From: Ashinkailepas kermadecensis
Taxonomy: Eukaryota > Arthropoda > Thecostraca > Neolepadidae
Reading direction: 5' to 3'
DNA length: 64,000 bases
NCBI GenBank assembly: GCA_034440615.1
Contig: JAOTOM010002704.1
Coordinates: 38,501 to 102,500 of the forward strand
A program made the position numbers and the translations under genes. The notes below the pieces were generated by a model. The model was not told the DNA's origin. It worked only from the letters and a program-made list of their open reading frames with translations, and searched no databases. Positions 4,301 to 64,000 of the stretch are shown piece after piece (within the stretch, counting starts at the first letter, position 1; every line of letters begins with the position of its first letter).

Positions 4301-7300
4301 TACCGATCGGTAATGCGAATCTCAATACGTGTACGCGGTGGTTGGCACTGATTGGTGATTTTTGTCTTGGCGCGTCGTGAACGGTGCCTATCGGTGATAT
4401 TCTGGCCTGACGTGACCTCGAGGCCTGTTGCATCTCGTGGGTGTTTCACCTTATCTGGCCAACACCGAAGGATCGGTCTCTCTCCTGGCATCCCGTGTCA
4501 CGTTTCAGCTGACGTGACCTGACATGGCCTGGCACTATCTGACCAACAGGGTTCGGCCAGTCACTGCTGCACACCATGTCGTGTCTGGTGCCGTTCTTGG
4601 AGCACAGGCTGATCGACTCCCTGCCCTACCTCGTGGCGTCCAGCTTGGCCACGTTTCCCGTCTCGTTGCACCGCGACATCGTCAACACGCTCTGCCACTA
4701 CCTGTTGCCGTTCACGCTCAGTAAGTCCGGACCGCGTCGGTACCATCGGGTCACCACTTGTCGTGGGGAAACGTTCGGATAGTGAGGAGGAAATGCGTGA
4801 GAGAGCCAGAGGAGCTCCGTATTGAGGCGGTCGGACGGTGGTGGCCACCCCCTGGAGCTGCACAGTTGAAACAGCGTCTAATTTCGCGATTTTAGGTGTC
4901 GTAACAAGGATGTAAATGCAATTTATGTTGAGATAGGTTCCAAATACTGAGGGATGCAGCTATCCAAATTGGTATTTGGAGCTATTTCAAGGTGCTTGAT
5001 TTCAGCTGAATGCATTTACATTTACATTGGCCATCACAAATTATCCAGGGTTATTTTATTTACATCCTGACACCCGCGCCCTTAAGCCCAAATAATCAAT
5101 CAATCAAAACATCCTGACACCAAGCAAATTTGAACACACTGGTTGAAAAAATAGACTCTCATGTCCGTGAAGAGCTCCCATGTGTCGGTGATGTTGCTTT
5201 ATTCTCCAGGCCCTGACGTGGAGAACTACACCTCCAACTCCATCACTGCCATCGTCATGATGGTGTTCCAGTACACCGATAACACGGGTATGGTGGCTCG
5301 CCGGTGCGGTGCACGTCGTCCTCTAGCGAGTGTGTCGGTGCGCGGTTGTCCCTTTGTTTGTATCTGTAACTGCTTTCGTGAACAAAATTATAGATTTGCA
5401 TGCCACCGTCATGGCAGCTTAAACGTTAGATATATTTCATTCTTCCAAGGCATAGTTCGGCAGAAAGGTCATGGCTTTCATAAGCCTGGAATGTCAAAGA
5501 GGCCTTTTGCACTGTGGTTGCTGCACATATTTTGCCCTGTATCTCAGTGGGCATTAGCGCTGTATTATAGTGGCGCTGTTGTATCACGTCATATTGTCAC
5601 GGAAAACCCGAAATCCTAAGCGGAGAGCGCAATTTGAGACTAAAACCTTATGGTGATAAAACAAGCACATTCATTGTGGTATTGTCTGTCAACATCTATC
5701 TGATGAAAGCATTGAGTGAATGGGCGCTGTATGACCAACGCAACCGATGCGCCCCTAAAGCCAAATAACCAACCAAAGCATTGAGTTAATCTGAAGGCGT
5801 CCATTCATGATCAGCTTTCTTAGGACAGAAGATCCTATCTTTGGAAACCCAAAATATTATATCTAAGTTCAGGGTTTGCCTACATGGATTGCAAGGCATT
5901 ACCTGCCACCCTCTCGGCGAGGCCGATTCTACACCGTTTTGTAGGCGCTACCTGTCCTTTTGTTGTGGCCAGCTCTACACTGTTTTGTAAGGCTCACCTG
6001 GCCGTGGGGTGTGGCCAGCTCTGCACTGTCAGCTGCTGGAGACGGTCATGTCGCGGCGTCGGATGGTGACCCGGGACCTGTTCTGCATCATCGCGCACGG
6101 CACGGTCAGCGCCCGGCTGCCGGCCGCCCACCTGCTGTTCCACTACTGGCCGGCCCTCAACCCGTCGTCGGCCCACCGACGCGGCCACCTGCTCAAGTTC
6201 TCGAGTCAGTCGCTGAGGTCACCTCTTACCCGTGGCGTTCGACCAGTGGGTTGCTCATGGTGTCAGGTCAGCTACCGAGGTCATCCGCTCAACTTGCCGG
6301 GGCCATTTGCTGAGGTCATTGTTGAAGAGGCCAGTTAACGAATCCTCAGCTCAGCGTCTTGCTAGTCAACCACTAATTAGGCATATCTGTAAAATGATAA
6401 AATGTTTTTTTATAACCATTTACCATCTAACTGTCGAGTGGACTTCGAAGCAATCTCTACCAGCCAGATGCATGCTTCGAGCTTAGTTTTTCCTACTATC
6501 CCATTGTTGACAAAACACTTTTGTGTGTGTGTGGGGGGGGGGCAAGGCACGAGACATTTTATACATTATTGTAAGTGAATATCAATCGTTTTGAGAGTTC
6601 AGCCGTAAACGCATTTCATCAGGGCTGTTGGGGCCATGCATCTACATTATTGTATCACACAGTTAAACTAATCGCAGTCATGACCCTGTGATGTTGGCGG
6701 TTCCTCACATGTTTACATGTCCCTACATATCCATGTGCCGCCTTTGCATGTTCACATGTCCTGGCTGTTGCAGGCTGGGAGCCACACCAGTGCGAGCGCG
6801 ACAACTGCCCGTCCAACGAGAACAACGAGGCCATCCAACTATGTCTTGACCACAACGTGGCGGTACTGCAGGGCTCTGAGTACCCGCCGCCGCTCTACCT
6901 GTGTCAGGTGAGACACAGCTCCGCCGCTCTATCTGTGCCAGTTAAGACACTCCACCTGCTCTACCTGTGTCAGGTAGGTGAGACAGCAATCTGCCCGCTC
7001 TACCTGTGTCAGGTGAGACACTGCTCAGCCAGCTCTACCTGTGTCAGGTGAGACAACACTCCGCCAGCTCTACCTGTGTCAGGTGAGACACTGCTCCGCC
7101 AGCTCTATCTGTGTCAGGTGAGCCGCCGCTCCGCCTGTGCCAGGTGAGACGCCACTCAACCGCACGACCTGTGTCAGGTGAGACGCCGCTCGACCGCACG
7201 ACCTGTGTCAGGTGAGACGCCGCTCGACCGCACGACCTGTGCCAGGTGAGACGCCGCTCGACCGCACGACCTGTGCCAGGTGAGCCGCCGCTCCGCCTGT

Positions 7301-64000: not shown

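What the first reader, a model, noticed from the sequence alone, without database searches (positions are those of the whole stretch)
5925..64000. Minisatellites built from splice junctions throughout one gene
At about 26 exon edges of unc79 the adjacent tandem repeat contains the exon end, the splice site and some intron. Acceptor side: exons 6, 10, 14, 15, 17, 20, 21, 23, 24, 25, 26, 37, 41, probably 46, and more weakly 9 and 11. Donor side: exons 7, 10, 18, 27, 31, 33, 34, 35, 38, 42, 43, 44. Copies are always head to tail and extend into the intron, with the functional copy at the exon-proximal edge. Unit lengths vary from 23 to 112 bases with no shared sequence except the local junction, so this is not one mobile repeat. 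It looks like a recurrent process of junction-centred tandem duplication that lengthens introns. Purely intronic arrays also exist (39765, 41590, 31785), so enrichment must be measured.
Basis: partly seen in the sequence, partly recalled or inferred. Interest (0 to 1): 0.92.

Follow-up and report, generated by a model that had tools for sequence, protein, structure and literature searches.

The report
Minisatellites spanning exon edges in barnacle
In one gene, most likely of a barnacle, about a fifth of the exon edges have been copied head to tail into the neighbouring intron, a phenomenon described before in lancelets ("mirages") and on chicken dot chromosomes ("exon stuttering"), here counted against chance.

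Summary
The window holds most of an unc-79 gene, most likely of a barnacle: 45 modelled exons join into one stop-free frame of 2,141 codons, nearest to Pollicipes. Of 28 robust tandem arrays in introns 1-44, 15 include an exon end, its splice site and some intron; 3 more do so in diverged form, and one array cut by the window end repeats the start of exon 46. That is 19 exon edges (16 strict, 21 with two weak donors), not about 26. No array overlaps two junctions, and the units are unrelated.

With one unit placed at random in the array-collapsed gene, 3.1 of 28 overlaps are expected; matched for GC, 6.1 to 6.8; observed 15 (P 1e-8; 4e-5 to 9e-5). With other TRF score cut-offs the GC-matched P runs from 8.5e-5 to 0.018. 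The excess lies only in overlapping arrays. By base coverage junctions are not enriched, and units are not centred on the splice site.

This is the kind described as mirages in amphioxus and exon stuttering in chicken. Most likely: tandem duplications seeded in GC-rich exon-edge DNA, tolerated because exon definition uses the exon-proximal site. New lineage, known kind.

The parts
2975..59455 (+). unc-79 gene, exons 1 to 45 of my model (start of exon 1 approximate; coding sequence continues beyond both ends of the model)
5928..6029 (+). array, unit 46, spans acceptor of exon 5 (6019), 11 nt exon
6921..7818 (+). array, unit about 34, repeats donor of exon 6 (6907); 22 junction copies; TRF itself starts the array at 6995
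12669..12999 (+). array, unit 112, spans acceptor of exon 9 (12978), 22 nt exon
13019..13525 (+). array, unit 86, spans donor of exon 9 (13071), 53 nt exon
18565..19171 (+). array, unit 98, spans acceptor of exon 13 (19148), 24 nt exon
21722..22662 (+). array, unit about 25 (TRF ends it at 22439); diverged copies of the acceptor of exon 16 (22645)
23312..23515 (+). array, unit 40, spans donor of exon 17 (23341), 30 nt exon
27461..28409 (+). array, unit 70, spans acceptor of exon 20 (28382), 28 nt exon; 13 junction copies
31039..31546 (+). array, unit 58 (TRF ends it at 31480); diverged copies of the acceptor of exon 22 (31528)
33388..33574 (+). two-copy repeat, unit 84 (TRF ends it at 33558); alignment reaches 14 nt into exon 24 (acceptor 33561)
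34845..36073 (+). array, unit 94, spans acceptor of exon 25 (36058), 16 nt exon; 12 junction copies
43082..45028 (+). array, unit 23, spans donor of exon 31 (43091), 10 nt exon; exon 31 rests on frame and splice consensus, not on the four proteins
45877..46219 (+). array, unit 25, spans donor of exon 33 (45886), 10 nt exon
46950..47856 (+). array, unit 93, spans donor of exon 34 (47012), 63 nt exon; this donor is supported by none of the four proteins
50412..51037 (+). array, unit 104, spans acceptor of exon 37 (50984), 54 nt exon
53313..53360 (+). two-copy repeat, unit 24, spans donor of exon 38 (53317), 5 nt exon
55621..56036 (+). array, unit 104, 99% match, spans acceptor of exon 41 (55985), 52 nt exon
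57772..57890 (+). two-copy repeat, unit 61, spans donor of exon 43 (57821), 50 nt exon
61401..64000 (+). array, unit 68, repeats acceptor and start of exon 46; real exon copy must lie beyond the window; 1 of 38 copies keeps the frame of the Pollicipes exon
39797..40274 (+). purely intronic array, unit 37 (comparison)
31951..32372 (+). purely intronic array, unit 76, 99% match (comparison)

Best explanation
These are independent minisatellites seeded by tandem duplication of short GC-rich segments that happen to straddle exon edges, the same kind of thing as amphioxus mirages and avian exon stuttering. Steps: (1) exon DNA and the intron next to it are GC-rich (shown), and in this genome such DNA is prone to short tandem duplication (inferred). 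(2) Duplications lying inside exons break the protein and are lost (inferred); those straddling an edge survive, because exon definition pairs the exon with its nearest splice sites, so the copy touching the exon body stays functional and the extra copies fall into the intron (shown: anatomy, one open frame, no sign of purging of decoy splice sites; inferred: the splicing rule). (3) The array then grows and homogenises into the intron by unequal exchange or slippage, lengthening it, while coding selection holds the exon-proximal copy (shown: array anatomy; inferred: process).
For: 15 of 28 robust arrays take in a junction against 3.1 expected by placement and 6.1 to 6.8 with GC matching. Overlap / within 100 nt / farther: 15 / 8 / 5 observed, 6.8 / 8.5 / 12.7 expected with GC matching, so the excess sits in units that contain exon sequence. 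GC is 0.647 in exons, 0.62 in the first 20 nt of intron, 0.44 beyond 400 nt. Exonic share of the unit fits a uniform spread, as for random placement across an edge (n = 14). Splice dinucleotides in copies are kept at 0.95 against 0.87 for other positions (13 junctions with 2 or more copies), and 65 of 92 copies carry a site scoring at least as well as the functional one by a generic matrix (14 junctions with 2 or more copies, exon 31 donor left out). 14 of 16 units are not multiples of 3 and 37 of 38 copies in the last array do not keep the Pollicipes exon frame, so use of inner copies as coding exon would mostly break the frame. Hron et al. 2026 (PMC12954441, section 7 part 1) describe the same anatomy in chicken and, in the discussion, in GC-rich gerbil genes.
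Against: One gene only. The null assumes the seed was one unit long; with two units 11.3 overlaps are expected and P = 0.068. GC-matched P weakens with stricter arrays: 0.0063 at TRF score 150, 0.014 at 200, 0.018 at 500, and 0.0013 without exons 31-36. By base coverage there is no enrichment. GC matching leaves a 2.2-fold excess unexplained. Copies were found by likeness to the junction, which may favour kept splice signals. No transcripts, reads or second haplotype were available, so correct splicing and copy-number instability are not shown.
Confidence: 0.65

Rival explanations
1. No preference for edges at all: arrays arise anywhere in GC-rich DNA and the overlap with junctions is what placement gives.
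For: GC matching doubles the expected overlap from 3.1 to 6.8 of 28; by base coverage junctions are not enriched (13 of 88 against 30.5% of intron bases); with a seed of two units P = 0.068; at strict TRF cut-offs P is only 0.014 to 0.018.
Against: 15 observed (18 with diverged arrays) against 6.8, P 8.5e-5 and 1.3e-7; 12 of 24 against 5.8 (P = 0.0013) without the uncertain exons 31-36. Arrays merely close to exons show no excess.
Confidence: 0.21
2. The arrays were seeded when introns were short, so almost any unit had to touch an exon; later growth made the introns long.
For: If every ancestral intron had been 100 to 150 nt, 17.2 to 13.2 of 28 overlaps are expected, close to the 15 seen.
Against: After collapsing arrays the introns still hold about 36 kb, the shortest present intron is 335 nt, and the array 55621-56036 (99% match) looks recent in an intron with more than 500 nt of other sequence.
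Confidence: 0.1
3. Intron gain: the arrays are tandem duplications of exonic AG-GT sequence that created the introns.
For: Model proposed from amphioxus mirages, and by Rogers as cited there (PMC3087553 passages).
Against: None of the merged loci overlaps more than one exon, so none carries both junctions of an intron by TRF boundaries.
Confidence: 0.03
4. Assembly artefact: arrays inflated or made by misassembly.
For: Reads could not be inspected; copy numbers of near-identical arrays may be wrong.
Against: A number of arrays have diverged copies (for example 67 to 76% matches), the units differ from site to site, and the modelled coding frame is intact.
Confidence: 0.04

Closest known systems
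Mirages: minisatellite-like tandem duplications of exon-intron boundaries in amphioxus (Adh3, globins; TnC and PGBD5 as told in PMC3902484)
   Same: Tandem repeats span the exon end and splice site, at donor or acceptor side; unit lengths vary between loci; many copies carry AG or GT (PMC3087553 and PMC3902484 passages).
   Different: Cephalochordate; one or two junctions per gene in the globin and PGBD5 passages, here 19 of about 90 exon edges in one gene of a probable barnacle. Undisturbed splicing (RT-PCR) and length or somatic instability are reported there, not testable here.
Exon stuttering / sequence stuttering on chicken dot chromosomes (Hron et al. 2026)
   Same: GC-rich genes with repetitive introns; exon edge plus splice site copied through the neighbouring intron; purely intronic expansions alongside; coding exons intact (PMC12954441, abstract, section 7 part 1, section 9 and passages).
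   Different: Birds (and, unshown data, GC-rich gerbil genes); variation of intron length between individuals is shown there. In the parts I read there is no count of arrays against GC-matched placement.
Intron creation by tandem duplication of AG-GT (Rogers; Gao and Lynch; seen only as cited in PMC3087553)
   Same: Tandem duplication involving splice-site sequence.
   Different: There the new intron lies between two copies (recalled); here existing introns are lengthened and no array carries both ends.
Introner elements (recalled, no call)
   Same: Repeated sequence inside many introns.
   Different: Introners share one sequence; these units are unrelated.

Membership tests
Mirages (amphioxus) | Tandem repeat spanning an exon-intron boundary | tested here: met
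   15 of 28 arrays strictly, 18 with diverged ones, plus the last array
Mirages (amphioxus) | Both 5' and 3' boundaries can be affected | tested here: met
   7 acceptors and 8 donors among the strict 15
Mirages (amphioxus) | Many copies contain AG/GT splice signals | tested here: met
   dinucleotides kept at 0.95 over 13 junctions with 2 or more copies
Mirages (amphioxus) | Regular splicing of the mRNA is not disturbed | not testable with these tools
   no transcripts; only an intact conceptual frame
Mirages (amphioxus) | Length instability between haplotypes or cells | not testable with these tools
   one assembled sequence, no reads
Exon stuttering | Exon-edge fragments with splice site repeated in the adjacent intron, with purely intronic arrays alongside | tested here: met
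Exon stuttering | GC-rich coding sequence | tested here: met
   exon GC 0.647, intron 0.488 after collapsing arrays; GC3 0.86 over 16 hand-picked exon segments
Exon stuttering | Intron length varies within the species | not testable with these tools
   one assembled sequence
Intron gain by tandem duplication | Array carries both splice sites of the intron | tested here: not met
   0 of 42 merged loci overlap more than one exon
Introner elements | Shared sequence between introns | tested here: not met
   406 unit pairs, best 69% over 64 nt

The most novel reading that the evidence does not exclude
Exon edges are true hot spots for tandem duplication beyond their GC content, through a process tied to transcription or splicing of the edge, and this has arisen independently in barnacles, lancelets and birds as a general way in which GC-rich genes lengthen their introns.
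Probability: 0.2. Interest if true: 0.85.

Novelty: new member of a known kind. Interest (0 to 1): 0.52.

Why it matters
It puts a little-known form of gene instability into an arthropod, at a density that lets one gene serve for statistics, and in GC-rich exons as in chicken. Hron et al. tie stuttering to GC-rich coding DNA; a barnacle case would let that link be tested in an unrelated lineage. It also gives a measured statement that arrays with exon sequence exceed GC-matched expectation while arrays merely near exons do not, and natural tests of how the spliceosome chooses among many near-identical splice sites.

Tried and rejected
Mobile repeat or introner: rejected, units unrelated. Hairpins: unit folding energy no different from GC-matched windows (mean z 0.07, n = 29 units). 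G-quadruplex: 14 motifs in the window, all on the minus strand, at 12563-12901, 41260 and 47019-47763, so not general. Purging of decoy splice sites: no sign, if anything the reverse (permutation P = 0.05). Intron gain: no array with both junctions. Coverage test: negative for enrichment, reported as such. Cut-off: the TRF score of 90 was chosen after seeing the list; nine weaker loci (score 40 to 89) in introns 1-44 overlap no exon, giving 15 of 37 with GC-matched P 2e-4.

Literature: searches. In that open library, one search found 2 papers on mirages and one on stuttering, and I saw none on arthropods or barnacles in the listings; term searches inside three barnacle genome papers showed no minisatellite and no tandem repeat of this kind. 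The library is partial, so no claim of absence from print is made. Canestro et al. 2002, the original mirage paper, is not held and I know it only through papers that cite it. Genome-wide count: not possible.

Corrections on the way: the exon 31 donor was set to 43090 and corrected to 43091 from then on; expected and observed counts were the same. Exon 30 acceptor is taken as 42072, not the 42048. Zero-length and array-internal exons proposed were dropped by hand when the 45-exon list was made.

Full report
What the window is. Concatenated plus-strand translations match UNC79 of the NALCN channel complex (7wji_B E 2.7e-136 for the first part; 7sx3_D E 2.6e-125 for the second). The best protein in the large database is Pollicipes pollicipes unc-79 (P0001, 80% in its best local alignment, next Penaeus at 48%), so the animal is most likely a barnacle; the species is not known. 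The curated 45-exon model joins into one frame of 2,141 codons without a stop, 87% identical to P0001 over 1,491 aligned positions and 72% over a further 594. 71 of 88 junctions are recovered by at least two of four proteins; of the 17 that are not, 12 belong to exons 31-37. Results are given with and without exons 31-36.

The arrays. TRF (rerun and merged) gives 42 loci of period 9 or more in the window; 37 lie in introns 1-44, 28 of them with score 90 or more. Those 28 cover 30.5% of intron and 6.6% of exon bases. Fourteen overlap an exon by 5 to 63 nt; a fifteenth, after exon 6, has 22 copies of the donor junction by local alignment though TRF starts it later. Three diverged cases (acceptors of exons 16, 22, 24) were accepted with shuffled controls. 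The last array, 61401 to the window end, repeats an acceptor-like CAG followed by a relative of the Pollicipes exon start [13 protein letters not shown]; its genuine copy must lie beyond base 64000. Two weak donors without a TRF array (exons 5 and 27) were left out. So 16 strict, 19 in my count, 21 at most.

Is it more than chance. Two views give different answers. By bases, junctions are in arrays less often (13 of 88) than intron bases are (30.5%), because arrays grow into introns. By events, with every array collapsed to one unit and that unit placed at random wherever it has some intron, 3.1 of 28 overlaps are expected and 15 seen; a per-intron version of the null expects 3.8, P 1e-7. Intron GC falls from 0.62 next to exons to 0.44 beyond 400 nt, so I matched windows for GC within 0.10 or 0.05: 6.1 and 6.8 expected, P 3.8e-5 and 8.5e-5. 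Sensitivity, GC within 0.05: 18 with diverged arrays, P 1.3e-7; without exons 31-36, 12 of 24 against 5.8, P 0.0013; without the exon 6 array, 14 of 28, P 5e-4; with a seed of two units, 11.3 expected, P 0.068. By TRF score cut-off: 40, 15 of 37, P 2e-4; 100, 14 of 27, P 4e-4; 150, 12 of 25, P 0.006; 200, 11 of 23, P 0.014; 300, 10 of 18, P 0.017; 500, 9 of 16, P 0.018. Split by position, the excess is confined to arrays that contain exon sequence (15 / 8 / 5 against 6.8 / 8.5 / 12.7). So GC explains part, not all, and the result leans on the seed being one unit.

Anatomy bearing on mechanism. The unit's exonic share ranges from 0.17 to 0.82 and fits uniform (n = 14): the splice motif is not the centre. 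No locus overlaps more than one exon. Fourteen of 16 units would shift the frame if an inner copy were used, and 37 of 38 copies in the last array do not keep the Pollicipes exon frame. Yet splice dinucleotides in the copies are kept at least as well as neighbouring positions (0.95 against 0.87, 13 junctions) and 65 of 92 copies have a site scoring as well as the real one. The decoys therefore seem harmless. The simple reason, from established knowledge of splicing (recalled), is exon definition: with short exons and long introns the sites nearest the exon body win. That would make edge-straddling duplications as tolerable as intronic ones, whereas those inside exons are lost.

What is known. 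The same anatomy was named mirages in amphioxus Adh3 and found in globin genes (PMC3087553 abstract and section passages), with TnC and PGBD5 named in a passage of PMC3902484. In 2026 Hron et al. described exon stuttering on chicken dot chromosomes: exon edges with their splice sites copied through the neighbouring intron in GC-rich genes, more than 90% of source sequences within one base of the exon border, intron length variable between birds, and a similar pattern, data not shown, in GC-rich gerbil genes (PMC12954441 abstract, section 7 part 1, section 9 and passages). They speculate on replication stress and repair in GC-rich DNA, or meiotic exchange. The present case meets the features that could be tested here and adds a third lineage with GC-rich coding DNA. 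Term searches inside barnacle genome papers do not show it; Balanus improvisus is reported to have extreme nucleotide diversity, and whether such diversity matters is open.

Verdict. A real, striking pattern, counted at 19 edges; known in kind, and not seen for arthropods in the listings of the searches made; the claim of a preference for exon edges beyond GC is supported in one gene, more weakly for the strongest arrays, and needs the genome.

Noticed in passing
24589-24748 and 60175-60336: A tRNA-Val-like sequence inside a short dispersed repeat; a second copy 89.5% alike and shorter pieces at 54442-54504 and 56828-56910: probably a tRNA-derived SINE.
   Followed up: partly
8983-9408: Fragment of a reverse transcriptase (Pfam RVT_1, E 6.6e-9) inside intron 6; the overlapping open frame 9353-9721 has no Pfam match.
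   Followed up: partly
16955-17262, 12530-12696, 20431-20673: Long short-period repeats (GGACA, CCGACC, TA) in introns; the CCGACC run abuts the exon 9 acceptor array, whose unit holds similar hexamers.
   Followed up: no
42950-50268: Exons 31-36 are poorly supported by the four proteins; one exon (45331-45399, [13 protein letters not shown]) is matched by shrimp and cockroach but I see no counterpart in the Pollicipes protein.
   Followed up: partly
introns 1-44: Intron GC outside collapsed arrays rises towards exons (0.44 to 0.62); decayed older exon-edge copies could contribute.
   Followed up: partly
introns 9, 13, 18, 21, 23, 27, 29, 35: Of the 8 arrays that stop within 100 nt of an exon without strictly overlapping it, 7 lie on the acceptor side; two of these are among the diverged cases.
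   Followed up: no
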